The translations under genes and the position numbers were made by a program. A stretch of DNA of 14,732 nucleotides, taken from Acidobacteriaceae bacterium (GTDB taxonomy: Bacteria > Acidobacteriota > Terriglobia > Bryobacterales > Bryobacteraceae). The DNA lies in the NCBI GenBank assembly GCA_019246575.1, contig JAFAQG010000467.1, positions 1 through 14,732 of the forward strand, in the 5' to 3' direction. The notes beneath the pieces were generated by a model. It was not told where the DNA came from and did no database searches. It saw only the letters and a program-made list of their open reading frames with translations. Position 1 is the first letter of the stretch, and each line of letters begins with the position of its first letter. Positions 1-13,503 of this stretch are shown here, piece after piece.

Positions 1-67
1 GCACGGCACAACTTGAGCATTGCAAGTCCAGCACGTTTGTTCAGACGATCCAAGAGAAACTAATGGC

Positions 68-277
68 ATGACGTCAATCATCATGCGGGACCCACAGATA
101 CTGGGAGGAGCGCCGTGTTTTCGCGGCACTCGGGTGCCGTTCAAGAATCTTCTCGATTACATCGAAAGCGGCGAAACGTTGGATGATTTCTTAGAAGATT
201 TCCCTTCCGTCACACGAGAAATGGCGATTGAGGCACTCGAGACAGCAAAGGATTCGCTTCTTGCCGTCATCGAATGA
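68..277 (+). CDS. DUF433 family antitoxin-like protein
   Basis: Small protein of the DUF433 family (about 69 residues from this ATG), a family usually found as the antitoxin of a PIN-like toxin gene. The diagnostic stretch is present: an N-terminal 'RDPQILGGAPCFRGTRVP' motif, then a helical region with 'LLDYIESGETLDDFLEDFPSV' character and a C-terminal helix. In the family the N-terminal part is thought to be a winged-helix-like DNA-binding domain, so autoregulation of the pair is likely (inference). The reading frame is open to a TTG at 20, but homologues I know start near MTSII, and AAGAG at 52-56 is a modest ribosome site for ATG 68. ATG 83 is a third option. The stop overlaps the next gene by 4 bases (ATGA), so translation is probably coupled. 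Confidence 0.85.
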   Translation: MTSIIMRDPQILGGAPCFRGTRVPFKNLLDYIESGETLDDFLEDFPSVTREMAIEALETAKDSLLAVIE

Positions 278-609
278 GGATTCTGATTGATGAATGTATG
301 CCGTGGAAAATCGGCAAACGTATCATTGGGCATGAATGCGAAGGCGTAGTAAAAGCCGGTTTTGCAGGTGAGGGGAACGGCGTTCTGCTGAGGCTGGCTG
401 AGGAGGCCGGTTACGATGTGCTGCTTACTGTAGATCAAGGCATTCCATATCAGCAATCGTTAAAAGATCTCCGAATCGCTGTCATTGTAATTCGGGCAAC
501 GTCGAATAAGATCGAAGTGTTAGAACCTCATATTCCAGCCGTTCTAAACGCTTTGGCATCTATTCACGCGGGAGAAGTCATATACGGTGTAACTGGCGTG
601 AACGGTTGA
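274..609 (+). CDS. DUF5615 PIN-like toxin candidate
   Basis: A 111-residue protein matching the DUF5615 PIN-like family: N-terminal beta strand 'MRILIDECMP' with acidic pair D6/E7, a 'GNGVLLRLAEEAGYDVLLTVDQGI' type core with D54, then 'PYQQSL'. PIN-like proteins are Mg-dependent ribonucleases that use a cluster of acidic residues. With the upstream DUF433 gene (4-base ATGA overlap) it forms a standard toxin-antitoxin arrangement. The segment after 'GEGNG' reads VLL, where family members I remember usually have an acidic residue before LL (E or D). V37 may therefore mean a weakened or inactive active site, but this is from memory and not from an alignment. Full length for the family. Toxic activity is inferred only. 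Confidence 0.8.
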   Translation: MRILIDECMPWKIGKRIIGHECEGVVKAGFAGEGNGVLLRLAEEAGYDVLLTVDQGIPYQQSLKDLRIAVIVIRATSNKIEVLEPHIPAVLNALASIHAGEVIYGVTGVNG

Positions 610-639: not shown

Positions 640-1395
640 TCAGCGGCCGCGGGGGGTGGGCCAGTTGGCGGCGACGGAGGCGCGGAGGCGGAGGATCGAA
701 GTGGTCTTCAATTCGGAGACTCGCGAGACGCGCAGATTCACAATTTCGCCGATTTCGCGCAGCGTCAGCTCTTCCTGGTAATAGAGAGCAAGAATCAATT
801 TTTCGGCTTCGGGCAGTTTCTCAACTGCACTGGCAATCAGGCGCTCGAGTTCGGTGCGCTCGACCGTTGCAGAGGGCGATTCATCGCTCGAGGCAATCGT
901 TGACAGCAAATCCTGCCCTTGCTCGGGGCCGACGGACATCTCGAGACTGCCGAGCGTCAGACCCTGCACTTCGACGAGGCGCTCGCGGTATTCGGCAAGC
1001 GTGATGCCGAGCTCGGCAGCGATCTCTTCTTCGGTAGGAGGGCGCTGCAGCTTTCTTTCGGTGGCGGAAATGGCAGCTTCGATTTCCTTATATTTTTTCC
1101 TTCGATGGCGCGAAGCCCAATCCATGCCGCGCAGGCTATCGAGGATAGCGCCGCGGATTTTATATTCCGCGTAGGTCTTCAGCTTAACGGCCTGAGTGGG
1201 GTCGTAGTTGTCGATGGCCATGATAAGACCGACGACACCGCTAGAGACGAGATCGTCGAGGCACACATTGACGGGCAACGTCTCGTGAATGCGGCGGGCA
1301 ATCAATTGCACCTGCTTCATGTGCTCGAGAATCAGCCGGTCGCGCTCCTCGGGGGCGATTTGGCGAGCCTCAGTTTGGTAGGGGGCGGCGATCAT
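640..1395 (-). CDS. FliA/WhiG-type RNA polymerase sigma factor
   Basis: A 251-residue sigma-70 family factor of the FliA/WhiG (sigma-28, group 3) type. Region 2 spans about residues 22-92, with 'LDDLVSSGVVGLIMAIDNYD' (core binding) followed by 'LKTYAEYKIRGAILDSLRGM' (-10 recognition). Region 3 is about 100-145 ('RRPPTEEEIAAELG'-like sequence). Region 4 is about 185-238, with the helix-turn-helix 'TLREIGEIVNLRVSRVSEL' (-35 recognition). Region 1.1 is absent and the length fits FliA. No flagellar genes are nearby. The neighbours are a divergent PilZ gene and the Tad pilus cluster, so control of surface structures is a reasonable guess. The ATG has no clear Shine-Dalgarno sequence. An 8-codon reading frame including the stop (1392-1415) overlaps it by ATGA and could couple its translation. 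No anti-sigma gene is visible. Confidence 0.92.
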   Translation of the reverse strand: MIAAPYQTEARQIAPEERDRLILEHMKQVQLIARRIHETLPVNVCLDDLVSSGVVGLIMAIDNYDPTQAVKLKTYAEYKIRGAILDSLRGMDWASRHRRKKYKEIEAAISATERKLQRPPTEEEIAAELGITLAEYRERLVEVQGLTLGSLEMSVGPEQGQDLLSTIASSDESPSATVERTELERLIASAVEKLPEAEKLILALYYQEELTLREIGEIVNLRVSRVSELKTTSILRLRASVAANWPTPRGR

Positions 1396-1448: not shown

Positions 1449-1850
1449 GTGGTCGATAAGAACTGCGTGAGGGTTCGACGAGATAGCACGCGCAATGCGG
1501 GAGGTTACCGGTGCGAACGCCGCCGGAACAAGCGGCTGCTGTGCTCGGATCTGGTGCAGGTGCTATGGAAGGCAGGGAACGGCGTGCCACAGTGCGAAAT
1601 TGCCGTTCTCGAAAATCTATCACTTGCAGGTGTCGGCCTATTTATGGGCGTCTATATCCCCGAAGGTACGGAGATAGAGATCGTTAGTGACGATACTCAC
1701 CTGAGGGGATCGGTGAAGCAATGCCGCTTTCGAGAAAACGGGTATGTAGTCGGACTGGAGTTGCACCCGGAATCGCAGTGGGCCCAGCAGCCAAATAGTA
1801 ACTTCTGGCCTAAGCACCTGCTGGATGTATCGCTATTAGAGCTGGATTAG
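1449..1850 (+). CDS. PilZ domain protein (putative c-di-GMP receptor)
   Basis: A 133-residue single-domain PilZ protein. Both c-di-GMP-binding signatures are visible: an RxxxR stretch at R25-R29 within 'ERRRNKR', and the (D/N)xSxxG motif as N56-L-S58-L-A-G61. A late strand 'GYVVGLEL' closes the beta barrel. Small PilZ proteins act by binding cyclic di-GMP and contacting a partner, and they often affect motility, pili or exopolysaccharide. The GTG start at 1449 has no strong ribosome site. A later in-frame GTG (codon 7) would not remove the domain. It is divergent from the sigma-factor gene and convergent with the 3' end of the Tad operon. A role in tuning pilus output is an inference from position. 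Confidence 0.85.
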   Translation: MVDKNCVRVRRDSTRNAGGYRCERRRNKRLLCSDLVQVLWKAGNGVPQCEIAVLENLSLAGVGLFMGVYIPEGTEIEIVSDDTHLRGSVKQCRFRENGYVVGLELHPESQWAQQPNSNFWPKHLLDVSLLELD

Positions 1851-1915: not shown

Positions 1916-2521
1916 CTAGAAGACGCCGGGGATTAGGTGGGTGCGGACGTGGCCGCAATACCGGCGGTAGGCTTCATCCTTCGAAAGAAGCTTCTCTTCC
2001 TCTAACATACGTCCGACTTGGAACAAGTAGAGAAGGCAATAAATACCGACATTGATTAGTGAGAACGCACTGAGCAGAAAGCCAATGTGGTTGAGCAGAT
2101 AGCCGAAGTAAATGGGATGGCGCACGAGGCGATAAGGGCCTCGATCGATGATGCCGCGATTGGCGGGCAGCAGGCCGAAACGATTGCCCAGATAGACTTT
2201 CGAGGTAATTTGCCACAAGATTCCAAGAATCTGAATCCCCTGGCTGAGCCATAGCGGCGCGAGGCGGAGGCCGACGCCGAGGTTAATCGCGAGGAAATAG
2301 TAGGTTCCGCACACGGTCAGCAAACACGTCTTGAAGCTGATATTTACATCTTCGGGGCGGCGCGCGATGAGGATCAGCAACACCGTCACGGTTTCCGCTA
2401 TGGCCAGCAGCAGAACGTTCAAGTGATGAGTATGCGCGAAGGCGTGGGCGGCGCGGTAAACAAATATCCCGAAGGCACAAGCTGTAATCAGTTTTGTGGC
2501 GGCGGGGAGCAGGCGTTTCAT
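1916..2521 (-). CDS. Isoprenylcysteine carboxyl methyltransferase-like membrane protein
   Basis: A 201-residue integral membrane protein of the ICMT/PEMT-like methyltransferase superfamily. It has about five hydrophobic segments (roughly 8-24, 36-54, 65-83, 89-107, 137-167). The cytosolic SAM-binding signature is clear: 'GPYRLVRHPIYFGYLL' at 128-143, then 'EEEKLL' (174-179) and 'YRRYCGHVRTHLIPGVF' at the C-terminus. In the superfamily the Arg-His-Pro and Glu residues bind SAM, while the substrate varies (prenyl-cysteine carboxylates, lipids, others). It starts 6 bases after tadC and is in line with nine minus-strand genes, so it is very probably co-transcribed as the last gene of the Tad operon. 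It has no clear ribosome site of its own, which suggests coupling to tadC. The substrate is unknown; pilin, pseudopilin or lipid are all open. Confidence 0.85.
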   Translation of the reverse strand: MKRLLPAATKLITACAFGIFVYRAAHAFAHTHHLNVLLLAIAETVTVLLILIARRPEDVNISFKTCLLTVCGTYYFLAINLGVGLRLAPLWLSQGIQILGILWQITSKVYLGNRFGLLPANRGIIDRGPYRLVRHPIYFGYLLNHIGFLLSAFSLINVGIYCLLYLFQVGRMLEEEKLLSKDEAYRRYCGHVRTHLIPGVF

Positions 2522-2527
2522 GCCGGA

Positions 2528-3469
2528 TCAGTGATGAAGGTTGCGCATGGCAGGCAGAAGATTGCGATAGAGCTGAAGCATGCCGCCTCCGGCTGTAACT
2601 ATGAACAGGGAGGGAAGACAGAAGAAGAAGATGGGAAAGACCAGCTTGACGCCGACCTTTCCGGCGCGTTCTTCCGCCTCCTGCCCCCGGCGGACACGGA
2701 GGAAGTCGGATTGCGTGCGGAGCGCCTCCGAAATGCTGGTGCCGAAGCGATCGGTTTGAATGAGAATGGCAACGAGCTTTTTGACGTCGTCTTCACCGGT
2801 ACGCGTACCGAAATTGCGTAGAGCTTCCGCGCGGCTTTTGCCGGCCATAATTTCCATATTCAAGAAAGAGAGTTCGTCGGCAACGGCGGGATGGACTTCC
2901 CGCAGATCATGGCTTACTTTTACGATGGCGTGATCGAGACCGCAGCCAGCTTCACTGCACACGACTAACAAATCCAGGACATCGGGAAGAGCGAGTCGAA
3001 TCTGCTCGCGGCGACTCTTGATGCGCCGACCGAGAATAAAGGACGGCAACGAGTATCCCATTCCGGTCATCGCGAGCGGGGCAGCGATTCGAAAAACAGG
3101 ACTGTGAACGAAACGGTAGCAGAAAGACGCATAGAGGGCCAGAAAAAGGGCACCCGAGAGCGCTTTCAGTCCGTAGTAGACGGGGACGGCGGATTGAGAG
3201 CGGAAACCAGCGGTAATTAAGTCATTCCTGGTGTTGGTGGCATCCTGCGACGAGATGGGCAGGGCCTTGCCGAGCGATTCGAGCCAGCGTTTGATGGGGC
3301 TGGCGAGATCCTGCTTGCCGTGATTCAGGTGCGGCGATACGGAGATCGACGTAGTCGTTGTTGCCAGTTGATCGAGCAGGCGTGCCGGCCTGACGTAATG
3401 GATGTAACCAAAGAAAGATATGACGCCGAGGAGTAAGAAAAAGAGAAGCGCAGAAAGGAAGATAGCCAT
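2528..3469 (-). CDS. tadC: Tad pilus inner-membrane platform protein TadC
   Basis: A 313-residue type II secretion F-domain (GspF-like) membrane protein and the second platform subunit of the Tad machine, paired with TadB. It has an N-terminal membrane segment (about 2-22), two more hydrophobic stretches near 98-118 and 127-147, a cytosolic T2SSF domain (about 160-275) and a C-terminal membrane segment (about 274-294). The domain includes 'LPDVLDLLVVCSEAGCGLDHAI', broken here only by normal family variation (the usual form is DxLDLLVVCxEAGxGLDxAI). Its ATG follows the tadB stop by 2 bases, with AAGGTG upstream as a fair ribosome site. Length is normal. TadB and TadC together are thought to couple CpaF ATPase motion to pilin extraction from the membrane. 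Confidence 0.93.
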   Translation of the reverse strand: MAIFLSALLFFLLLGVISFFGYIHYVRPARLLDQLATTTTSISVSPHLNHGKQDLASPIKRWLESLGKALPISSQDATNTRNDLITAGFRSQSAVPVYYGLKALSGALFLALYASFCYRFVHSPVFRIAAPLAMTGMGYSLPSFILGRRIKSRREQIRLALPDVLDLLVVCSEAGCGLDHAIVKVSHDLREVHPAVADELSFLNMEIMAGKSRAEALRNFGTRTGEDDVKKLVAILIQTDRFGTSISEALRTQSDFLRVRRGQEAEERAGKVGVKLVFPIFFFCLPSLFIVTAGGGMLQLYRNLLPAMRNLHH

Positions 3470-3471
3470 TG

Positions 3472-4437
3472 TTACACCTTAATATCGACGATTTTGCGGA
3501 TGACAAGATACCCGATCGCCTGGCCGACCACAGCGCCGTAAACAAGCATCCGGCCGACAGGATCAGTAACAAGACCGACGAGATATTTAGGGTTGAGAAA
3601 CATCAAGGCGAGAGTGACGAAGACGGGCATGAGGAGCAGCACGAGGCCAGTCATGCGGCCTTGGGCGCTAACGGCTTTGACCTGGCCTTTAAGGCGGAAA
3701 CGAGCTCTGATAACTTGTGAAAGCTTAGTAAGAATTTCACCTAAGTTGCCGCCGGTCTCCTGCTGGACGAGAACGGAGGAGATGAAGAAGCGGACATCGA
3801 CGAGGGGCATGAGAACGACAAGTTTATTAAGCGCCACCTCGAGCGAAGAGCCCAATTGGAGATCGTTACATACCCTCTGAAAGGCGGAGCCGAGGGGCTC
3901 GGGGGAGTCGGCCGCGAGCATCTCGAGCGCGATGGTAAAGCCGTGGCCCGCGCGCATGGAGCGCGAAATGAAGTCGAGCGCTTCCGGGAACTGCTGCTCG
4001 AATTGGGCCAAGATTTTACGGCGTTTTCGCAATATGACCAACAAGGGCAGCAGGGCGGCCAATGTGCCGAGGAGAAGCGAGCTGAACCCTCGATATTCGC
4101 GAGGCCCCAGCTTGGCGCCGAGCAGTAATCCGACGATGCCAATGGCGCATGACATGACGATGAACTGCGTGCCGGTCGATTTCTGGCCGGCTTGATCCAA
4201 GAGCAAGCTAACGCGCTCCATAACATGGAAACGCCGCAGCAGCTTAGCCAGATAGTCCTGCACCTGGGCAGGCCGAAGCAGTTCGGGGTTGCGCTGTTCC
4301 GCGGCGCTTGCGTCGGCATTGCGCAGCATGGAGCGGATCTGCTGTTTTTGTTTCGACTTCAAATACGAGAGGCCGACATTGACGCAGACCAGTACGGTGG
4401 CGAAGACGATGACGAAGAATACGAGTGCGATGATCAT
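3472..4437 (-). CDS. tadB: Tad pilus inner-membrane platform protein TadB
   Basis: A 321-residue GspF-family membrane protein, first of the TadB/TadC pair. It has an N-terminal membrane helix (about 2-26), a basic linker, and paired helices around 93-109 and 118-136. The T2SSF domain runs from about 145 to 290 with 'FPEALDFISRSMRAGHGF' and 'QQETGGNLGEIL', both hallmark positions for TadB, followed by C-terminal membrane helices (about 263-283 and 296-312). The gene starts 7 bases after cpaF ends and is followed 2 bases later by tadC, fitting one polycistronic message. Nothing is unusual in length or composition. Confidence 0.94.
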   Translation of the reverse strand: MIIALVFFVIVFATVLVCVNVGLSYLKSKQKQQIRSMLRNADASAAEQRNPELLRPAQVQDYLAKLLRRFHVMERVSLLLDQAGQKSTGTQFIVMSCAIGIVGLLLGAKLGPREYRGFSSLLLGTLAALLPLLVILRKRRKILAQFEQQFPEALDFISRSMRAGHGFTIALEMLAADSPEPLGSAFQRVCNDLQLGSSLEVALNKLVVLMPLVDVRFFISSVLVQQETGGNLGEILTKLSQVIRARFRLKGQVKAVSAQGRMTGLVLLLMPVFVTLALMFLNPKYLVGLVTDPVGRMLVYGAVVGQAIGYLVIRKIVDIKV

Positions 4438-4444
4438 GCGACTC

Positions 4445-5794
4445 TCAGCGGACCTCGACGATGCTCTGGAACAGATGAGGCGGAAGCTCGATCCCGGCGG
4501 CCTTCAACCGTTCGCTGAATTTGGGACGGACGCCGGTGGGGCGGAAGCGGCCGGTGACACGGCCTTCACTGGTGAGACCGGTGCGTTCGAAGACGAATAC
4601 GTCTTGTGTTGTGACCAGGTCTCCTTCCATGCCGACGCATTCGGTAATGTAAGTGACTTTTCTCGTTCCGTCGGAAAAGCGGGAGATCTGAACAAAGAGA
4701 TCGATGGCCGAGGCTACCTGCTGGCGAATGGAGCGGACGCTCAGGTTGGAGCTAGCCATGCCGATCATGACTTCGAGCCGGCTGATGGCGTCGCGCGGGC
4801 TGTTGGCGTGAATGGTGGTGAGCGAGCCGTCGTGGCCGGTGTTCATGGCCTGCAACATATCGAGAGCCTCTTCGCCGCGGACCTCGCCGACGATGATGCG
4901 ATCGGGCCGCATGCGGAGGGCATTGATGAGCAGGTGACGTTGCAGAATGGCGCCCTTGCCCTCGATATTGGCGGGGCGGGTTTCGAGGCGCGCGACATGG
5001 GTTTGGCGAAGCTGGAGCTCGGCGGCGTCTTCGATGGTGACGATGCGTTCATTCGACGGGATAAAGCCCGAGAGCATGTTGAGGAAGGTGGTTTTTCCAG
5101 CGCCGGTGCCGCCCGAGATGATGATGTTCAGGCGCGCCTTGACGCAGCCCTTGACGAGCTCGAGCATGGGTTCGGTGAGCGAAAGGTTGCGCAGCAGATC
5201 GATGGGCTGCAGCGGATCGCCGCCGAAGCGGCGAATGGAGAGCAGAGGTCCGTCGACGGCGAGCGGCGGAATGACGGCATTGACGCGCGAACCGTCGGGC
5301 AAACGGGCGTCGACCATGGGCGACGATTCATCGATGCGGCGTCCGACGCGGGAGACCACGCGCTCGATGATGCGCTGCAGGTGAGCGTCGTCGCGGAACT
5401 CGATAGGGGTACGCTCGAGGCGGCCTTCGCGCTCGACGTAGACGAGGCGCGGCGTGGTAACCAGGATGTCGGACACGGTGCGGTCGCGCAGCAAGGGCTC
5501 GAGCGGCCCCAGCCCGAAGATTTCATCGAGAACTTCTTCGATAAGGCGATCTTTTTCAAGGGAGCTGAGGGGCGTTTTTTCTTCGTTGACCAGCTTGACG
5601 ACCGACGGCCGGATCTCCTGGCGAACGCGCTCGCCGGGCATGGCGTTTACGGCCTCGAGGTTGATGCGGTCGAGAAGCTTCCGGTGGACGGCGAACTTGA
5701 GCTCCTGATACTGGACGGAAGAAGGGTCGCGAGTAGTTCCGCGGCTGAATTCTCCGGTTCGCGGTTCGCTGCGCGGCGAGTCGGTTACAGGCAT
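4445..5794 (-). CDS. cpaF: Tad pilus assembly ATPase CpaF (TadA)
   Basis: A 449-residue secretion ATPase of the GspE/VirB11 superfamily, CpaF/TadA branch; it hydrolyses ATP in the cytosol to drive Flp pilus assembly. All catalytic boxes are present and intact: Walker A GGTGAGKT (228-235), Asp box [10 protein letters not shown] (253-262), Walker [17 protein letters not shown] (299-314) and His box [11 protein letters not shown] (320-330). The N-terminal domain carries the usual '[11 protein letters not shown]' and '[13 protein letters not shown]' stretches. A short, polar, probably disordered leader (residues 1-28) precedes it. It is separated from cpaE by 9 bases and from tadB by 7. A 509-codon open frame on the opposite strand is a by-product of GC bias, not a gene. 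Confidence 0.96.
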
Positions 5795-5803
5795 AAAGAC
5801 CTC

Positions 5804-6946
5804 TTAGCGGAACAATGAAAACTTCTTTTTAGGCTTCGCCGCAGGCGTGCCTGCTATTTTTGCGGCGAGAAGCGCAAAGTGCTGAGCCAAACGGTTATTG
5901 GAATCGAGCAGGTTACCGCTCGAGTAACATTGATACAGCGCCAGGTAGTCATTCGGCAACGCGGCATAGAGCGGACGGCCAAGCATTTTTTCGAGCTCTT
6001 GCGTGCTGATGTCCATGGTTTGCGGAGTTCGATTGAGGACTAACTGGAGTTTTTCGCCTTGATCGAATAAGCCATGAATAATTGTTTTGAGGCCGTGCAG
6101 GGCGACGACTTCAAGCGTGGAGACGACAAAGAGCTGGTCTATTTCGTCCAGAACTTCGGTAGCAATGGAGTTCAGGCCGCGTCCGAGATCGAGCACGATC
6201 CAATCGTGCTGAGAGCGCGTGAACTGCAGAACCTGCCGTAATTGATTTTGGTCGGGGTGCTCCAAGCGCGAGTAAGTCAGGGGCGCCGGCATGACGGTGA
6301 GGTTCGGCTTGTATTCGAGCGTCAGAGCTTTCCACAAACTTTCGTCGAGACGAGTAAGGTTCTTGACGGCATCCAGCATGGAGTAGGAGCTGGGCGTTTT
6401 CATGAGAAAGCTGACCAGTCCTGAGGTGAGGTCGAGGTCGCCTAAAAGGACGTTTTTCTGGGTTGCGTTCTGAAGCTCGAGGGCGACATGGCAGGCCAAG
6501 GTTGTTGCGCCGCAGCCGCCCTTGGCGGATAAGAAGCCGATAATTTTTCCGCGGCGGGCCGGGATATCGGGGGCCTGCGAGGAAGCCAGCATGCGTTCGA
6601 GGACGGGATGGAGCGTATCGAGCGGAGGATGCAGGAATTCATTGGCTCCGGCACGCATGGCGGCGAGAATGGTCTGCGGGTCAGCGGTTGAATGAAGGGC
6701 GACGATTTTGACGCGGGGCGCGTAATATCGGACCTGGCGGAGCGCGTTGTCGAGCTGCGTAGGCACCGCCGACACATCGAGCAGAAGCACTTCGGGCTTG
6801 GTTTTCGCGACGCGCTCGAGCAGGCTCGGCCAATCCGAATCGTGCTGATCGAGGGGCAACGGCCGCTCGGATGACCGCAGCACCTGTAAGGTCTCGCGGC
6901 GCAAGCCCTCATTTTTCAGGAGGGCTAAGAGATTTGAGGAACTCAT
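5804..6946 (-). CDS. cpaE: Tad pilus localisation ATPase CpaE (TadZ)
   Basis: A 380-residue two-domain protein. An N-terminal receiver-like domain (about 5-125) keeps an Asp at the usual acceptor position (D57 in 'EVLLLDV') but is probably not a classical phospho-receiver in this family. A C-terminal ParA/MinD-like ATPase domain starts near 134. The deviant Walker A reads KGGCGATT (142-149): the signature Lys142 is kept, while the canonical P-loop Lys is Ala147, a substitution typical of CpaE/TadZ. Further motifs are 'NVLLGDLDLTSG' and 'DWIVLDLGRG'. It ends in a basic tail, 'KPKKKFSLFR', that may contact membrane or nucleic acid. CpaE/TadZ proteins position the Tad apparatus, often at a pole. 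The start overlaps the cpaC stop by 4 bases (ATGA). Confidence 0.93.
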   Translation of the reverse strand: MSSSNLLALLKNEGLRRETLQVLRSSERPLPLDQHDSDWPSLLERVAKTKPEVLLLDVSAVPTQLDNALRQVRYYAPRVKIVALHSTADPQTILAAMRAGANEFLHPPLDTLHPVLERMLASSQAPDIPARRGKIIGFLSAKGGCGATTLACHVALELQNATQKNVLLGDLDLTSGLVSFLMKTPSSYSMLDAVKNLTRLDESLWKALTLEYKPNLTVMPAPLTYSRLEHPDQNQLRQVLQFTRSQHDWIVLDLGRGLNSIATEVLDEIDQLFVVSTLEVVALHGLKTIIHGLFDQGEKLQLVLNRTPQTMDISTQELEKMLGRPLYAALPNDYLALYQCYSSGNLLDSNNRLAQHFALLAAKIAGTPAAKPKKKFSLFR

Positions 6947-8427
6947 TGTGCAGATCCCTTTGCACCCGCGGGGGGTTGAGAAGCGGATGCGGACGTCATC
7001 TTAACGACCGGTTCGACCGGTACGGATTTTGTTGCTGCGCCGCCAGGCTTGACGGGTCCGCCGGTCCATTTGCTGAGCTGCTCAATGGGCAGTAATGCGC
7101 TGTGCGGCAGAGCCGGAACCGGGCCGTTTACAGGTGTTTGCGGCGCGGTGGACGAGGATCCCTTTAGGAATTCCTGCGGCATTTTGATTTCCGGCGGCTT
7201 AACTCCCGCGGGGATGGGCCGCACCAATTCCGGAGTGACGAGAACCAGCAGCTCGGTATTAGTCTTTGTCAGGTTGCGCGACTCGAATAATTTTCCAAGC
7301 ACGGGAATATTGGAAAAGCCCGGCAGTTTATTGAAGTTTTCTCTAACTTCGTTATCGAGCAAGCCGGCGATCACAAAGCTTTGATCGTTTTCGAGCTCGA
7401 CCTCGGTCTGAATTCTGCGGGTAGAGAGGCCCGGCATCGTAAATCCGTTGATGGTGAGGCCATTGGCATAATCGAGCGAGCTAACTTCGGGAGTTACATC
7501 GAGGCGAATGGTGCCGCGTGGAGTTATGGTCGGAACGAAGTTAAGGCGGATTCCGAATTCTTTAAATTGGATGGTAATCTGGCCGATACCGTTTGCGCCG
7601 CCCTGCAAAACGGGGAACGGGAATTCGCCGCCGGCGAGGAAGCTGGCGGGTTGTCCGCTGGTCGCTAGCAGATTGGGCTCGGCGAGCATCTGAAGCACGT
7701 TTTTGGTTTCGAGATCCTGAATCATGGCGCCGAGGTTCAGATCCGGGCGGAGATAAAACACATTCAGCAACTGGTTCAACGTGACTTTGGAGCCCGAGCC
7801 GCTGAGATCGAACTTGGGCGGTTGTCCAAACTGACCGGTGGTAAGACTGCTGATGCCCTTCTGGTCCATGCTGAACAGATTGAAGCCGAGTTGCGAGGTG
7901 GCGTCACGGTCTACGTTGGCGAAGCGAACTTTCAGCAGAATCTGAGGCTCTCTTTCGGGCACTGGGGCGCGCAGGAGGTTGACGACTTTGCCGAGCGTAG
8001 AGGCGATTTCGACGGCGCGATCGGCGGCGATTTGATCCTTTACTGTGCCGCGCAGAAATACATTGCCGTTATCGACGGTAATGGAGACGTCGGGGCCGAT
8101 CTCATCGCGCAGTTCGCGGCGGACGGTTTCGAAGCTGGGGTCATCGGTAGCGACGTGAACCGCAAAGGTGGTCCGGGCATCTTTCTGGTCCCAAACTATA
8201 AGGCTGGTATCACCAACCTCTTTGCCGTTCAACAACACCTCGCCGGCGCTGACGGCTACGGCTTCGGCGATTTTCGGATTTGCCACCGCGATGCGGCGGA
8301 TACCGGCATGCTCGAGAATCAGCGACTTATTAACGATGACAGTTACGTCCGATTCGGCCGTGGCCTGCGGGCCTGGCTGCGCGAAGGTAACACTGCTGAG
8401 CAGGAGGAAAGAAAGTAAGTGTCTCAT
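6943..8427 (-). CDS. cpaC: Tad pilus outer-membrane secretin CpaC (RcpA)
   Basis: A 494-residue type II/III secretin that forms the outer-membrane channel for the Flp pilus. A signal peptide (about 1-16, cleavage near 'TFA-Q') is followed by the N-terminal pilus/T2SS domain (about 26-93). A BON-like domain lies at about 97-155 ('DVSITVDNGNVFLRGTVKD'), and the secretin core at about 165-404 with 'VPTITPRGTIRLDVTPEVS' and 'LPGFSNIPVLGKLF' followed by 'TELLVLVTPELV'. A Pro/Ala/Ser-rich tail of about 90 residues (405-494) extends beyond the core and is likely flexible; its function is unknown. No CpaD/RcpB partner or pilotin gene is seen in the window. The start lies 3 bases after the cpaB stop. 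Confidence 0.95.
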   Translation of the reverse strand: MRHLLSFLLLSSVTFAQPGPQATAESDVTVIVNKSLILEHAGIRRIAVANPKIAEAVAVSAGEVLLNGKEVGDTSLIVWDQKDARTTFAVHVATDDPSFETVRRELRDEIGPDVSITVDNGNVFLRGTVKDQIAADRAVEIASTLGKVVNLLRAPVPEREPQILLKVRFANVDRDATSQLGFNLFSMDQKGISSLTTGQFGQPPKFDLSGSGSKVTLNQLLNVFYLRPDLNLGAMIQDLETKNVLQMLAEPNLLATSGQPASFLAGGEFPFPVLQGGANGIGQITIQFKEFGIRLNFVPTITPRGTIRLDVTPEVSSLDYANGLTINGFTMPGLSTRRIQTEVELENDQSFVIAGLLDNEVRENFNKLPGFSNIPVLGKLFESRNLTKTNTELLVLVTPELVRPIPAGVKPPEIKMPQEFLKGSSSTAPQTPVNGPVPALPHSALLPIEQLSKWTGGPVKPGGAATKSVPVEPVVKMTSASASQPPAGAKGSAQ

Positions 8428-8430
8428 TTA

Positions 8431-9300
8431 TTAATTCCCCCCGGAGATTTCGATTTGCTGTTCCGTTCTTTTCACGCCGTTGAAGACCTCCACGGTTCCG
8501 ACATCCGGCTTGCGGTGAGCGGCGGCAGCCTGGCGGACGGGACGGGCCGGCCTGGCGGGTTGCGGCGCAGCGGGTTTAGTTTCCGGAACTCCGAACAGGC
8601 TTGCGACGGATGTGCCGTGCGTTACTTCCTGTTTCGTGTCTAACGGATTTCTCAGCACAAGCTGGACCTTTGCTTCTGTGCTGGCCAGGTTCAGGACTTC
8701 CGCCTGATCGGGGGTGACGAGGAGGTTGACGACCTGGGCGGTTTGCGGTTTGCCGTCGATGTTACGTTCGATTTTTTGCCCTGCGGACAAGACCTCAATA
8801 TTCTGCAGCGCAGTGCGAGACAGCGTTCCGGTGGAACTGCGATCCGTGCCGGGCGGATTCCCGGCGACGAGCACATCGACGCGCATGCCGGGCAGGACAA
8901 ATCCAGCGAGGCCGACGACATCGTTGACGCGCAGAGCGACGGCACGCTTGCCGAACGGGATGGTGGCAGCGAGACCGGCGCCTGCACCTTTCGGCGCTAA
9001 GCGGCCATCGAGGATGGGTTCCTTTTCATAGATCGGAGCGAGGACGCCGCGCCCGATCACATCCTGCCGGTTGGTGACCGCATGGGAGGGAATCGATCCG
9101 AGCCAGGCGATCTCCTGAACATCGTAGTCGTGAATGAGCGCACCCACTTGAAGATCACGGGCGGCGACAACAACTTTGTGTGTCTTGGACGCCATCGCAG
9201 GCGCCTGCACGTGAGAAATAATGAGGCGATATACCAAAAAGCTGGTAAAGCCCGCTACAGCGAGGGCAAAGCCAAAAACACCAAGTAAACGTCGGTTCAT
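8431..9300 (-). CDS. cpaB: Tad pilus assembly protein CpaB (RcpC)
   Basis: A 289-residue periplasmic Tad component anchored by an N-terminal membrane helix (about 6-28). A SAF-like domain follows at about 43-103 ('VVVAARDLQVGALI', 'AVTNRQDVIGRGVLAPI'), then the RcpC/CpaB domain at about 112-220 with 'VLPGMRVDVLV' and 'LLVTPDQAEVLNLA'. The tail from about 238 is rich in Pro, Ala and Arg. In characterised systems CpaB supports the secretin channel and may stabilise or gate it. The ATG at 9298-9300 has only a weak ribosome site. It is preceded by 165 bases of non-coding DNA with hairpins, which separates it from flp and makes separate control likely. Confidence 0.93.
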   Translation of the reverse strand: MNRRLLGVFGFALAVAGFTSFLVYRLIISHVQAPAMASKTHKVVVAARDLQVGALIHDYDVQEIAWLGSIPSHAVTNRQDVIGRGVLAPIYEKEPILDGRLAPKGAGAGLAATIPFGKRAVALRVNDVVGLAGFVLPGMRVDVLVAGNPPGTDRSSTGTLSRTALQNIEVLSAGQKIERNIDGKPQTAQVVNLLVTPDQAEVLNLASTEAKVQLVLRNPLDTKQEVTHGTSVASLFGVPETKPAAPQPARPARPVRQAAAAHRKPDVGTVEVFNGVKRTEQQIEISGGN

Positions 9301-9465: not shown

Positions 9466-9666
9466 TTACGCGCCACCGCCCTGTGCTGCGGTATCAGCAT
9501 TGCTTAGTGCGGTGCCGATGTCATTAAACAGCGTGGTGATTTGTCCGCCAACGGTTGTCATGACGGTAATCGAGGCCAACGCAAGAAACGCCAGCAGCAA
9601 CGCATATTCGACGAGATCCTGGCCCTCTTCTTCGCGCCAGAATGCTCGTATAGCTGAATATGTCAT
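9466..9666 (-). CDS. flp: Flp/Fap-type pilin precursor
   Basis: A 66-residue type IVb Flp prepilin, the main subunit of the Tad pilus. A short charged leader ends in 'REEEG', and the predicted prepilin peptidase site is G15|Q16. The mature protein starts QDLVEYALLL with the family's invariant Glu at +5 (E20) and Tyr at +6 (Y21), followed by a single hydrophobic helix (about 22-38) and a small Gly/Ala-rich tail ending AAQGGGA. The mature length is about 51 residues, normal for Flp. The start is supported by an excellent ribosome site, AAGGAG at 9673-9678, 6 bases before the ATG. It is the best site in the window and fits high expression. It has a candidate promoter upstream and a terminator-like hairpin downstream. 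Confidence 0.95.
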   Translation of the reverse strand: MTYSAIRAFWREEEGQDLVEYALLLAFLALASITVMTTVGGQITTLFNDIGTALSNADTAAQGGGA

Positions 9667-10039: not shown

Positions 10040-10597
10040 TTAATGTGGAGCACGTGTAAGAGCCGATGCGGCAGCTGCTCGAAATATCACAAATCCGATT
10101 GCGGCGGAAGCAATAACTGCGCCATGCGGCATGCGAAGAGCCCGTTTGTGACGGATATCGAGCTGCGGATTGCCGCGAAAAGGCAAGCGCGCATGGAGCA
10201 ACTCGGAAACGATAAACCATAAGTTCCAGCAGGTGTCGCCGACGCGTTTTTTAAATGCCATAAGAACGAAGGAGGCGAGGCCGCCTAGAACGGAGGTAAC
10301 GAGGAAGATAAGAAACCAGTACCAGGGGCCGGCGAGTGCGCCGATGGCGGCCATGAGCTTGACATCCCCCGCGCCCATGCCGCGAATGGCGTAAAGAGGC
10401 AGATAGAGAAACAATGCCAGGCCCAAGCCGAGAAGCGCGTGCGACAGACCATGCCAGCCGCCGAGGAGCGTATTCGTTACTAAGCCTAGGATTACTCCGG
10501 TAACATTCAGCCAGTTCGGAATTTTCCTATAGCGGATGTCGTAAATGCCTGCGGCCGAGACGAAAATTACGAGCAAGATGTTTATGAGTACGGGCAT
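10040..10597 (-). CDS. cpaA: Prepilin peptidase CpaA (TadV), type IV leader peptidase family
   Basis: A 185-residue multi-pass aspartyl protease of the A24 family that cleaves Flp and pseudopilin leaders at the inner membrane. Both catalytic aspartates are present: D20 in 'GIYDIRYRKIPNW' and D78 in the GxGD motif 'GMGAGDVKLMAA'. About four to six hydrophobic helices span the chain. Like other TadV/CpaA enzymes it lacks the large N-terminal cytosolic methylase region of PilD. It should therefore be a peptidase only. The C-terminal 60 residues are basic and extend a little past the usual core. The ATG has AGGAG 4 bases upstream. It is probably the first gene of the minus-strand Tad cluster, divergent from the tadG-side operon. 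Confidence 0.93.
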   Translation of the reverse strand: MPVLINILLVIFVSAAGIYDIRYRKIPNWLNVTGVILGLVTNTLLGGWHGLSHALLGLGLALFLYLPLYAIRGMGAGDVKLMAAIGALAGPWYWFLIFLVTSVLGGLASFVLMAFKKRVGDTCWNLWFIVSELLHARLPFRGNPQLDIRHKRALRMPHGAVIASAAIGFVIFRAAAASALTRAPH

Positions 10598-10659: not shown

Positions 10660-10708
10660 GGAAGCAGGAAGCAGGAAGCAGGAAGCAGGAAGTGGGAAGT
10701 GGGAAGAG
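10660..10708. repeat. Heptanucleotide tandem repeat (7 units)
   Basis: Seven consecutive 7-base units: GGAAGCA four times, GGAAGTG twice, then GGAAGAG. It sits in the 217-base divergent region between cpaA and the tadG-like gene, about 63 bases upstream of the cpaA start. The strand bias is complete (purine-rich on plus). Such heptamer arrays are known in cyanobacteria and some other phyla and can vary in copy number. It also creates a meaningless minus-strand 'LLPASCF' open frame. Confidence 0.9.
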
Positions 10709-10814: not shown

Positions 10815-12320
10815 GTGTCGATGAACAGGCAAATAGTACAGAAAGGATTGCGCCCGACGCCAAGACGAGCGGAGCGCGGAGCGTCGCTCGTGTTGTTTCT
10901 GTATTCGTGCTTCTTCGTGCTGTTTCCGTTCATGAGCTTCGGCTTCGATTGGTCGATTCTGTACTGGACGAAGGCGCGGCTTTCGTCCGCGATTGACGCG
11001 GCAGCGCTGGCAGCAGCACGGTCGCTTACGGTCGATCAGACCGGGGCTTCGCAGACGGGGGCCGCGGCGGTGGTAGCGCAAAAATACCTGAACGCTAACT
11101 TTCCACCGGGATTGATGGGCATAACGGTGAATTTCGACGGCACGAACGCCAACAATTTTCAGGTGGTCGACGATTCGACGTATAAGACGCACACCGTCAT
11201 CATGAAAGCCTCGGCAACGGTTCCGCTGTTCTTCGCGCGAATGATCGGCAAGAGCACGGGTGTGGTTGCTTCGGCGGGACAGGCGACGCGTCGCGATTTG
11301 AATTTGATGCTGGTGTTGGACCGGACCGGTTCGATTCAGCAGGCGGGGGCCTGCCCGACCATGAAAGCCGCCGCAGCGAGCTTTGTCTCGATGTTCGCGG
11401 ATGGACGGGACACGGTCGGGCTGGTGACGTTTATGGCGAGCGCAAACCTCGATTATCCAATGACGAAGTCTTTCAAATCATCGTCGCCCAGCCTCAATGA
11501 TCAGCTTGCCACTCTGGTATGCGCTAACAATACGGGGTCGGCGGAGGCGTTCTCGCTGGCTTACCAGCAAATGCTACAGCTCAATCAGCCGGGCGCGCTA
11601 AACGTGATCGTGTTTTTCACAGACGGACATCCGAATACAACAACTGCGTATTTACCGATCTGGCCAACGGATGGCAGCCATCCGTGCGCAGGACCATACG
11701 ATGGCCAAAACTCGTTCAATGAAAACGTTATTCGCGGAATCATGATCGGCACTTCAGGAGGTGGAATTTATCCGAACTGGGTAGACCCGAACGGTAACGT
11801 AACACCGAACGGATACGGTCCGCCCGCGATCAACAGCAGCGGACCTCAAGTGCCGCTTCCAAATCCACCGTATAGCGGCTGCTCGTTCAGCGGAACTTCG
11901 AACAACAACGTTGTGGCATACCTTCCGGATCAAGACGAATGGGGCAACTCGCTCGATAACGGGTATCAGCCGGTTGCGAGATATCCGGGAAGCGAGGGAG
12001 ACGGGAACGGCATGCAGGACGGGCATATCCGAATTGACGACGTGATAACTCTGCAAAATGCTGCGATCAATGCGGTGGATGATGCGGCGAATAGGGCACG
12101 TCACGATCCTCTGGGCATTCTTGTTTACACCGTGGGTCTGGGTGACGATCAAAGCGATCCCCCGGATGCCGACCTGATGCAGCGCATGGCCAACGATCCG
12201 GCGAGCTCGAGCTTCGATCCGTCGATCCCGGCGGGGCGTTACATTTATGTGTCGAACGCGGCGGCGCTCAACGCGGCGTTTCACAAGATCGCGTCGCTGG
12301 TGCTGCGGCTCTCAAAGTGA
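10815..12320 (+). CDS. tadG: TadG-like protein with von Willebrand factor A domain
   Basis: A 501-residue pilus-associated protein. The N-terminus is TadG-like: 'RRAERGASLVLFLYSCFF' leads into one membrane helix (about 24-44), then 'ARLSSAIDAAALAAARSL'. The +5 position after the Gly is Leu (L27), not Glu, as usual for TadG, so peptidase cleavage is not expected. A vWA domain (about 163-490) has a recognisable metal site: D169-x-T171-x-S173 (a variant of DxSxS), T240 and D270 in 'VFFTDGHPN'. A long loop-rich insert (about 280-400) separates the two halves of the fold. Start: GTG 10815, or ATG 10821 two codons later; AAAGAG at 10807-10812 serves either. vWA pilus proteins often act as adhesive tips. 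It is first of three coupled plus-strand genes. Confidence 0.85.
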   Translation: MSMNRQIVQKGLRPTPRRAERGASLVLFLYSCFFVLFPFMSFGFDWSILYWTKARLSSAIDAAALAAARSLTVDQTGASQTGAAAVVAQKYLNANFPPGLMGITVNFDGTNANNFQVVDDSTYKTHTVIMKASATVPLFFARMIGKSTGVVASAGQATRRDLNLMLVLDRTGSIQQAGACPTMKAAAASFVSMFADGRDTVGLVTFMASANLDYPMTKSFKSSSPSLNDQLATLVCANNTGSAEAFSLAYQQMLQLNQPGALNVIVFFTDGHPNTTTAYLPIWPTDGSHPCAGPYDGQNSFNENVIRGIMIGTSGGGIYPNWVDPNGNVTPNGYGPPAINSSGPQVPLPNPPYSGCSFSGTSNNNVVAYLPDQDEWGNSLDNGYQPVARYPGSEGDGNGMQDGHIRIDDVITLQNAAINAVDDAANRARHDPLGILVYTVGLGDDQSDPPDADLMQRMANDPASSSFDPSIPAGRYIYVSNAAALNAAFHKIASLVLRLSK

Positions 12321-12835
12321 GAAAGATGCTCGCTCACAGACAGGATGGACGAATCACAATAGCGGCTCACCGGCGCAGCCGGCGCGAGAGGGGCGCGTCT
12401 TTAGTCGAGTTTGCGCTGGTACTCATTCCGCTGCTCGGGTTGATCTTCGGTATCATCGGGATCTCCTGGATTATTTTTGCGCAGAACACGATTCAGGAGG
12501 CGGTTCGGGAAGGCGTGCGTTATGGAATCACGGGCGGCGATCCAAGCTCCGGAACGGGATTAAATGCGCAGATTCAACAAGTCGTGCAAAATTACTCGGT
12601 CGGATTTGTCACGGACCCTTCTAACATCGTTATTAACTATTATTCGCCGAGCGATCTGACCACGCCGATAACGGACGCGAGCGCCGATTCCGGCGGCAAT
12701 GTACTGCAGGTGTCCGCGAGCGTGAGCATTAGGGGCGTAATTCTGATTGTGCGTCCGGACGCCGGCATAACCTTGACCGCCACGGCTTCGGATGTGATGG
12801 AGAACTCTCCTGAGGGCGGTCCGCCTCCTCTGTGA
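12317..12835 (+). CDS. tadE: TadE-like pseudopilin
   Basis: A 172-residue TadE-family protein. A basic leader of 26 residues ends in 'RRERG', followed by 'ASLVEFALVLIPLLGLIFG'. With cleavage at G26|A27, Glu31 is at +5 and Phe at +6, as in TadV-processed pseudopilins. One membrane helix (about 28-56) is followed by 'AREGVRYG'-like sequence (here VREGVRYGITGG) and a beta-rich extracytoplasmic part ending in a Pro-rich tail, GGPPPL. The GTG start overlaps the previous stop (GTGA). ATG 12326 is an alternative start three codons later. It would serve as a minor pilin needed for pilus assembly or initiation (family knowledge). Confidence 0.87.
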   Translation: MRKMLAHRQDGRITIAAHRRSRRERGASLVEFALVLIPLLGLIFGIIGISWIIFAQNTIQEAVREGVRYGITGGDPSSGTGLNAQIQQVVQNYSVGFVTDPSNIVINYYSPSDLTTPITDASADSGGNVLQVSASVSIRGVILIVRPDAGITLTATASDVMENSPEGGPPPL

Positions 12836-13503
12836 TTATGCGTATGAAACATAAATCGCATGCGAGCGAGCGAGGAACCGCTCTGGTGGAGTTCGCGCTG
12901 GTTGCGACGTTGCTGGTGCCGTTGGCGCTGGGAACAGCGGTCATCGGCCTGAACCTGATGCGGGCCATTCAGGTGACCGAGGTGTGCCGCGATACAGGCC
13001 ATATGTACTCGTATGGGGTGGATTTTTCACAGGCATCGAATCAGAACCTTGTGGCGGCGCTCGCCGCGGGATTGAATATGACTGCGCCGGATGGCAGTCT
13101 AGACCCGAACGGAAATGGAGTTGTTATCCTGTCCACAGTCAGTTATGTCGATGACTGCCGCGGTGGCGGGTACGGCGCCATCAACGCCTGCCCGAATTAC
13201 GGACAGGTGGTGTTTACGAGCCGTTTGACCATGGGCAATGCCGGGATTCATGCGAGCAATTTCGGAACACCCAACGCGGCGCTGATGGATAGCAGCGGGA
13301 ACATTCCGGCGGGAAATGCGAGCGGCGCGGCCGGTTATTTAAACGATGGAAGCGCGGTTGTCAATTCCGCATTCACAAATCTGATTCCGGTGAGCGATTC
13401 CGGCCATTTCGCGTATGTAGCGGAGATGTACACGATTTCGCCGGATTTCGATTTGTGGAGCTTTCTTCACATGACATCGCCGAGCGCGGTGTCGATATTT
13501 TAG
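12832..13503 (+). CDS. Second TadE/TadF-like pseudopilin
   Basis: A 223-residue protein with the same head as the preceding gene: 'HASERGTALVEFALVATLLVPLALG'-type sequence, giving a cleavage site G15|T16, Glu20 at +5 and Phe21 at +6, with one membrane helix (about 17-42). The extracytoplasmic domain is larger and Asn/Gly/Ser-rich, with three cysteines (one in 'EVCRDTG' and two in the 'DDCRGGGYGAINACP' stretch) that could make a disulphide. It ends without a recognisable C-terminal motif. The GTG start overlaps the tadE-like stop (GTGA). In-frame ATGs at codons 3 and 5 are alternatives. It is probably a TadF-position minor pilin, though the sequence is too divergent to choose between TadE and TadF. 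Confidence 0.82.
   Translation: MIMRMKHKSHASERGTALVEFALVATLLVPLALGTAVIGLNLMRAIQVTEVCRDTGHMYSYGVDFSQASNQNLVAALAAGLNMTAPDGSLDPNGNGVVILSTVSYVDDCRGGGYGAINACPNYGQVVFTSRLTMGNAGIHASNFGTPNAALMDSSGNIPAGNASGAAGYLNDGSAVVNSAFTNLIPVSDSGHFAYVAEMYTISPDFDLWSFLHMTSPSAVSIF

What the first reader, a model, noticed from the sequence alone, without database searches (positions are those of the whole stretch)
1916..3469. ICMT-like membrane methyltransferase built into a Tad pilus operon
The methyltransferase-like gene begins 6 bases after tadC, in line with the whole minus-strand cluster. It is not a standard Tad gene. In type IVa systems the bifunctional PilD both cleaves and N-methylates pilins; TadV/CpaA enzymes, like the one here, lack the methylase part. 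A separate membrane methyltransferase could supply that missing step for Flp or the TadE-like pseudopilins, or modify a lipid needed by the machine. The substrate idea is speculation; the gene position and the SAM-binding motif are visible.
Basis: partly seen in the sequence, partly recalled or inferred. Interest (0 to 1): 0.72.

Follow-up and report, generated by a model that had tools for sequence, protein, structure and literature searches.

The report
Recurrent membrane methyltransferase in pilus loci
A gene predicted to encode a membrane-embedded methyltransferase lies directly behind tadC in a bacterial adhesive-pilus (Tad) operon, and relatives of it sit repeatedly in other pilus loci, sometimes beside a predicted membrane hydroxylase, so it likely modifies a membrane lipid for the pilus rather than supplying the missing pilin methylation.

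Summary

The main idea, that it replaces the methylation TadV lacks, is not favoured: the 7 genomes with a pilA-linked copy all encode the PilD methylase domain, Flp N-termini do not track the gene, and nearly the same residues are conserved in pilus-linked and unlinked copies. In one class of Tad loci a fatty-acid-hydroxylase-family gene accompanies it in 14 of 15 loci, against 1 of 17 without it; that one keeps a methyltransferase remnant. The pair also occurs without Tad.

Best reading: an accessory, probably lipid-directed methyltransferase recruited repeatedly by type IV filaments. Substrate untested; the window shows no hydroxylase; its genome was unavailable.

The parts
1916..2521 (-). 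ICMT/PEMT-fold membrane methyltransferase, 201 aa, 6 bp behind tadC
2153..2179 (-). family signature FGLLPANRG (residues 115-123); all but N121 invariant or 90% conserved
2099..2122 (-). ICMT-type motif RHPIYFGY (residues 134-141); its SAM-binding role is recalled from the family
1994..1999 (-). invariant Glu pair E175-E176
2528..3469 (-). tadC (T2SSF domain)
3472..4437 (-). tadB (T2SSF domain)
4445..5794 (-). tadA/cpaF (T2SSE)
5804..6946 (-). tadZ/cpaE (AAA_31)
6943..8427 (-). rcpA/cpaC secretin
8431..9300 (-). rcpC/cpaB
9466..9666 (-). flp pilin; mature N-terminus read as QDLVEY after the Gly (cleavage motif recalled)
10040..10597 (-). tadV/cpaA prepilin peptidase, no PF06750 methylase domain among its hits
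10815..12320 (+). TadG-like protein: Tad N-terminal domain plus vWA
12317..12835 (+). TadE-like pseudopilin
12832..13503 (+). second TadE-like pseudopilin

Best explanation
The gene at 1916-2521 encodes a protein predicted to fold as an ICMT-type intramembrane methyltransferase, sits 6 bp behind tadC on the same strand, and likely methylates a membrane lipid (or lipid-like membrane molecule) at the cytoplasmic face for the pilus, rather than the pilin N-terminus. Shown: position, family match, recurrence in Tad loci and behind type IVa-type pilin genes, and co-occurrence with a FA_hydroxylase-family gene in some of them. Predicted: the fold. Inferred: that SAM is the methyl donor; that the substrate is a lipid, in some lineages first hydroxylated by the partner; that the product helps the pilus or is carried by it. 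It is an accessory, exchangeable gene: similar Tad loci often lack it.
Against: No FA_hydroxylase in the window nor beside the 7 pilA-linked copies; among the 28 Tad-linked loci of the first 80 it was found in 6. The 14-of-15 set may go back to one gain. pilA-MT pairs without any lipid gene point to the pilin. No lipid or product was measured. 31 of 80 relatives show no pilus gene nearby (15 of them Mesorhizobium; some on short contigs), and 10 of 16 in the Pseudomonadota sample show none. The window's own genome and its nearest kin could not be inspected.
Confidence: 0.42

Rival explanations
1. The enzyme methylates the pilin, but not to replace PilD: it modifies the membrane-embedded end of the major pilin, or a group attached to it, as a pilin-accessory enzyme comparable in position to TfpO/TfpW.
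For: Directly behind a pilin gene in a Methylophilaceae bacterium, two Variovorax, Pseudomonas panipatensis, an Acinetobacter and a Moraxellaceae bacterium, and one gene further on in G309; patchy presence, 1 of 149 and 2 of 25 genomes. [quoted passage not shown] aeruginosa glycosylate pilins and evade pilus phages (PMC11841053, abstract and passages).
Against: In Tad operons it is placed near tadC or the operon end, not at flp (L040, upstream of flp, is the exception); no MT-specific feature of Flp was found; PilA tails are inconclusive; Q104 is the only conserved position that set Tad- and pilA-linked copies apart from the others.
Confidence: 0.22
2. One reading: it N-methylates mature Flp or TadE-like proteins, supplying the activity that TadV lacks.
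For: TadV has no PF06750 hit; T4cP peptidases lack a methylase domain (PMC10191384, passages); pilin N-terminus and ICMT-type active site should both face the cytoplasm (recalled).
Against: Relatives stand beside pilA in 7 genomes that have the PilD methylase domain; Tad loci with similar TadA and Flp lack the gene, e.g. L157 and 17 of 32 loci of one class.
Confidence: 0.13
3. A general membrane-lipid methyltransferase with no pilus role that was carried along by mobile pilus loci.
For: Non-pilus contexts exist: Mesorhizobium, a LemA-like neighbourhood in Cupriavidus, the FA_hydroxylase pair in L281.
Against: Linkage to two filament types in several branches of the tree and of distant copies to other Tad loci is hard to get by hitchhiking; only 2 of 120 Burkholderiales genomes carry the gene at E<=1e-20, one of them the centre.
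Confidence: 0.15

Closest known systems
Isoprenylcysteine carboxyl methyltransferase (ICMT, PF04140), e.g. Ma-ICMT 4a2n
   Different: 28.7 bits against the 160-bit cut-off of NF040696; no prenylated protein known here; own signature FGLLPANRG
Phospholipid methyltransferase PEMT (PF04191)
   Same: Best Pfam match, 31.2 bits over cut-off 25
   Different: Match covers residues 93-181 only; lipid substrate not shown
PilD N-methylase domain (PF06750)
   Same: Would act at the same membrane face on type IV pilins (recalled)
   Different: No match; zinc-dependent (PMC10191384, passage); present beside the MT in 12 of 14 genomes searched
Pilin accessory genes tfpO/tfpW/tfpY
   Same: Some relatives occupy the slot behind pilA and are patchily distributed
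   Different: Known ones are described as glycosyltransferases or, for TfpY, an assembly aid (PMC11841053, passages); in the window the gene follows tadC, not the pilin gene
Tad/Flp (type IVc) pilus locus
   Same: Core set present in the window
   Different: No methyltransferase in the part of the T4cP component table that I saw (PMC10191384)

Membership tests
ICMT/PEMT superfamily | Pfam score over the curated cut-off | tested here: met
   PEMT 31.2/25, ICMT 30.3/24 bits
ICMT/PEMT superfamily | ICMT-type membrane fold (predicted model) | tested here: met
ICMT/PEMT superfamily | RHPxY and EE motif | tested here: met
   R134 H135 P136 Y138 E175 E176 invariant in 95 sequences; aligned to 4a2n
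Protein-S-isoprenylcysteine O-methyltransferase (equivalog) | NF040696 over cut-off | tested here: not met
   28.7 of 160 bits
LmtA lipid A methyltransferase | TIGR04571 over cut-off | tested here: not met
   23 of 325 bits
MddA methanethiol methyltransferase | NF045656 over cut-off | tested here: not met
   16.9 of 270 bits
PilD-type pilin N-methylase | PF06750 domain | tested here: not met
   Not among the Pfam hits of the MT or of TadV at E<=0.001
Pilin N-methyltransferase by activity | Methyl group added to the pilin N-terminus | not testable with these tools
   needs mass spectrometry
Lipid methyltransferase by activity | Methylated lipid lost in a deletion strain | not testable with these tools
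   needs lipidomics
Tad/Flp locus | TadA, TadB/C, secretin, RcpC, Flp, TadV, TadE | tested here: met
Pilin-accessory gene (tfpO/W/Y position) | Directly behind the major pilin gene | tested here: not met
   In the window it follows tadC; met only in relatives L001, L003, L006, L035, L037, L039

The most novel reading that the evidence does not exclude
A small mobile membrane-tailoring module, an ICMT-like methyltransferase with or without a di-iron-type hydroxylase, has been recruited independently by Tad pili and type IVa pili to make a new lipid or lipid-borne decoration of the filament or its base, for example to change surface adhesion or escape pilus-binding phages.
Probability: 0.25. Interest if true: 0.78.

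Novelty: new variant of a known kind. Interest (0 to 1): 0.55.

Why it matters
Tad and type IVa pili are assembled by well-studied parts, and the only methyltransferase in the review passages I saw is the PilD domain (PMC10191384). A membrane methyltransferase that recurs in both filament types, sometimes with a membrane hydroxylase, points to an uncharted membrane-lipid or pilin modification tied to pili. It can be tested by deletion plus lipidomics and pilin mass spectrometry in soil bacteria.

Tried and rejected
Own genome: none held. Viral-contig scan: no relative. No survey of the window's own lineage was possible: I had no handle for it, and the genomic context of P0002-P0007 (54-80% identical) was not available to me. 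My impression that the window is from Acidobacteriota is recalled and rests on no call.

Pilin C-terminal tails: all 7 MT-linked type IVa-type pilins end in small-residue-rich tails (6-13 residues after the last Cys in 6; no late Cys in one), against 5 of 27 other Pseudomonas pilins printed with 6 or more. Acinetobacter pilins mostly vary from 1 to 14, so I dropped it as an argument. The third Fisher value printed used a wrong total (31 instead of 27) and is not used.

Flp N-termini: 20 regions upstream of TadA from loci with the MT and 20 from loci without, chosen from the 108 TadA places. Position +1 is V or A in both, I only in some loci without (one stray non-Flp hit ignored; L193 also shows flp genes of a neighbouring locus). 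No useful signal.

PADLOC gave no match and PHROGs one weak family of unknown function. Rhizobium plasmid 'ICMT family' hits (59 of 64 plasmid records): the one opened, pRL11, is a longer protein in a caspase neighbourhood, not Tad. Eleftheria H9 was not Tad either.

Literature searches whose listings showed no paper on an ICMT-like gene in Tad or pilA loci: (open-licence PMC only). The one paper discusses an ICMT-like gene beside a collagen-like adhesin in Burkholderia (passages).

Tree: of 163 rows, 125 used; 13 Mesorhizobium, 10 rows labelled orphan-TadZ (L040 among them) and 15 P rows were dropped beforehand. The label counts treat rows of unknown context as not Tad, so I use the recount on the 81 labelled rows. 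41 of 120 inner branches are open and several long branches meet.

Full report

IT RECURS. A scan of named genomes found 443 relatives and kept the best 80. I classed these by tblastn with the window's Tad proteins and by home-made gene calls. 28 lie on the same strand downstream of tadC (16 Paraburkholderia, 4 Pandoraea, 2 Cupriavidus, 2 Herbaspirillum, and one each of Trinickia, Caballeronia, Variovorax and an Oxalobacteraceae without genus). L040 lies just upstream of flp (the script had filed it as orphan-TadZ), and L029 is convergent with a Tad locus. 13 are paired with a solitary tadZ-like gene. 6 stand directly behind a type IVa-type pilin gene. 31 show no pilus gene nearby: 15 are Mesorhizobium, two (L014, L016) share the flanks of the tadZ-paired site, L026 stands beside a FA_hydroxylase gene, and some lie on short contigs (L002, L019, L024, L058, L080). 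tadC-MT adjacency as in the window is seen in L012, L030, L033, L042 (one 52-aa call on the other strand between), L060 (0 bp), L071, L072 and L079.

CONTROLS ON CHANCE. In an even sample of Burkholderiales, 2 of 120 genomes carry the gene at E<=1e-20, one of them the centre genome. In the Paraburkholderia genus sample 55 of 144 genomes carry 72 copies. 33 copies lie 2.2-7.3 kb downstream of a TadA place on the same strand and 9 more do so in a second Tad type, so 42 of 72. Seen from the other side, 32 of 108 TadA places have it. In a second genus 3 of 11 genomes have it, each about 2 kb from TadA, while G142 has a similar Tad locus without it. In an even Pseudomonadota sample, 13 of 398 genomes (one is the centre, chosen because it has the gene) give 16 matches. 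The centre is pilA-linked. Three distant copies are same-strand in Tad loci (L286-L288, in genomes that also hold an unlinked copy), one is convergent with tadC (L284), ten show no pilus gene (L274-L283), and L285 is unclear. Annotated complete examples: plasmids pPT70 of P. terrae (CpaF, two T2SSF, MarR, MT) and pSBC2-4 of Caballeronia (CpaF, two T2SSF, TPR, MT).

TYPE IVa PILINS. The MT follows a pilin gene in L001 (106 bp), L003 (4 bp), L006, L035 (19 bp, beside divergent pilB- and pilC-like ORFs), L037 (64 bp) and L039 (55 bp). Five of these pilins were scanned: four match PF00114 and all five PF07963; L006 was read by motif only. In G309 a 352-aa membrane protein lies between pilin and MT. 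The gene is rare in those genera: 1 of 149 and 2 of 25 genomes, centres included.

SEPARATE LINEAGES. In the tree of 125 rows the window groups with P0002-P0007 and P0033 (SH-aLRT 96), apart from the large Burkholderiaceae clade; Variovorax L072 is apart from both. On the 81 rows of known context the tree needs 10 changes for the Tad label (at least 5 by starred branches) and 3 for the type IVa label (at least 2); changes may be gains or losses. It is a quick tree with open forks, so I claim several lineages, not exact counts.

WHAT IT IS NOT LIKELY DOING. The idea that it replaces the PilD methylase meets three facts. PF06750 is present in 12 of 14 genomes searched, including all 7 with a pilA-linked copy. 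The start of mature Flp does not differ with the gene in the 20+20 regions read. Positions conserved at 85% or more are common to Tad-linked, pilA-linked and unlinked copies; Q104 is the only candidate difference, and the unlinked set is rich in Mesorhizobium. Reviews state that T4cP peptidases lack the methylase domain and that the role of pilin methylation is unknown (PMC10191384 and PMC4471445, passages).

THE HYDROXYLASE PARTNER. In Paraburkholderia Tad loci whose TadA is 78-83% identical to the L060 query (32 of the 108 places, all read), a FA_hydroxylase-family gene (PF04116) lies directly behind tadC in 14 of 15 loci with the MT and is found in 1 of 17 without an intact one. In that one (L307) it lies at the operon end beside a short MT remnant (Fisher p 7e-7, which ignores shared descent). 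A different FA_hydroxylase lies divergently beside the distant MT in Tad loci L287 and L288. The pair stands without Tad in L281 (7 bp apart) and L026 (46 bp). In L004 and L010 a homolog lies 4-5 kb from the MT. The limits: only 6 of the 28 Tad-linked loci of the first 80 have it, none of the 7 pilA-linked ones does, and the window, which ends 1.9 kb beyond the MT, has none.

MECHANISM. Shown: a conserved ICMT/PEMT-type protein, its placement, its recurrence and its occasional partner. Inferred: SAM-dependent methyl transfer at the cytoplasmic face to a membrane lipid or lipid-like molecule, hydroxylated first where the partner is present, and used by or displayed on the pilus. Direct pilin modification is the main rival because of the pilA pairs; some pilin-accessory proteins are known to modify pilins (PMC11841053, abstract and passages). 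Neither product has been measured.

NOVELTY. The protein family is known; its recurrent attachment to Tad and type IVa pilin loci was not seen in the listings of the open-licence papers searched. I rate it a new variant of a known kind.

Noticed in passing
L005, L015, L022, L023, L025, L027, L032, L034, L048, L050, L051, L056, L065: In these Paraburkholderia and Burkholderia genomes the methyltransferase is paired with a solitary tadZ/cpaE-like gene and a small ORF (95 aa in L015) at a site without other Tad genes, with a shared downstream gene.
   Followed up: partly
L083:393-1451, L177:1871-2977: A 352/368-aa polytopic membrane protein of no Pfam family, with invariant histidines (546 homologs at E<=1e-3; Pseudomonas and Acinetobacter among those named), follows pilA in two genomes, once between pilA and the methyltransferase.
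   Followed up: partly
L035, L039, L133, L177: These PilA proteins carry an AAAAP-type C-terminal extension; controls vary too much to conclude.
   Followed up: partly
L039, L044, L064: A LemA-like gene and two further genes (TPM-like by eye, not scanned) precede the methyltransferase in Acinetobacter (with a pilin gene between) and in Cupriavidus (without).
   Followed up: no
L286, L287, L288: Distant (23-32%) ICMT/PEMT-type proteins sit in Tad loci behind tadC; in L286 and L287 the order tadC, TPR gene, tadV was read, with an acyltransferase-like ORF after the methyltransferase in L286.
   Followed up: partly
window 640-1395 (-): A sigma-70 family factor (regions 2, 3, 4) lies on the same strand 520 bp beyond the methyltransferase.
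   Followed up: no
window 1449-1850 (+): A PilZ-like ORF (20.3 bits, cut-off 22.5) on the opposite strand between the methyltransferase and the sigma factor.
   Followed up: no
window 20-277 and 274-609 (+): DUF433 and DUF5615/PIN-like overlapping ORFs that resemble a toxin-antitoxin pair, the second below its cut-offs.
   Followed up: no
window 10660-10706: Short tandem repeat of GGAAGCA/GGAAGTG units between tadV and the plus-strand pseudopilin genes (read).
   Followed up: no
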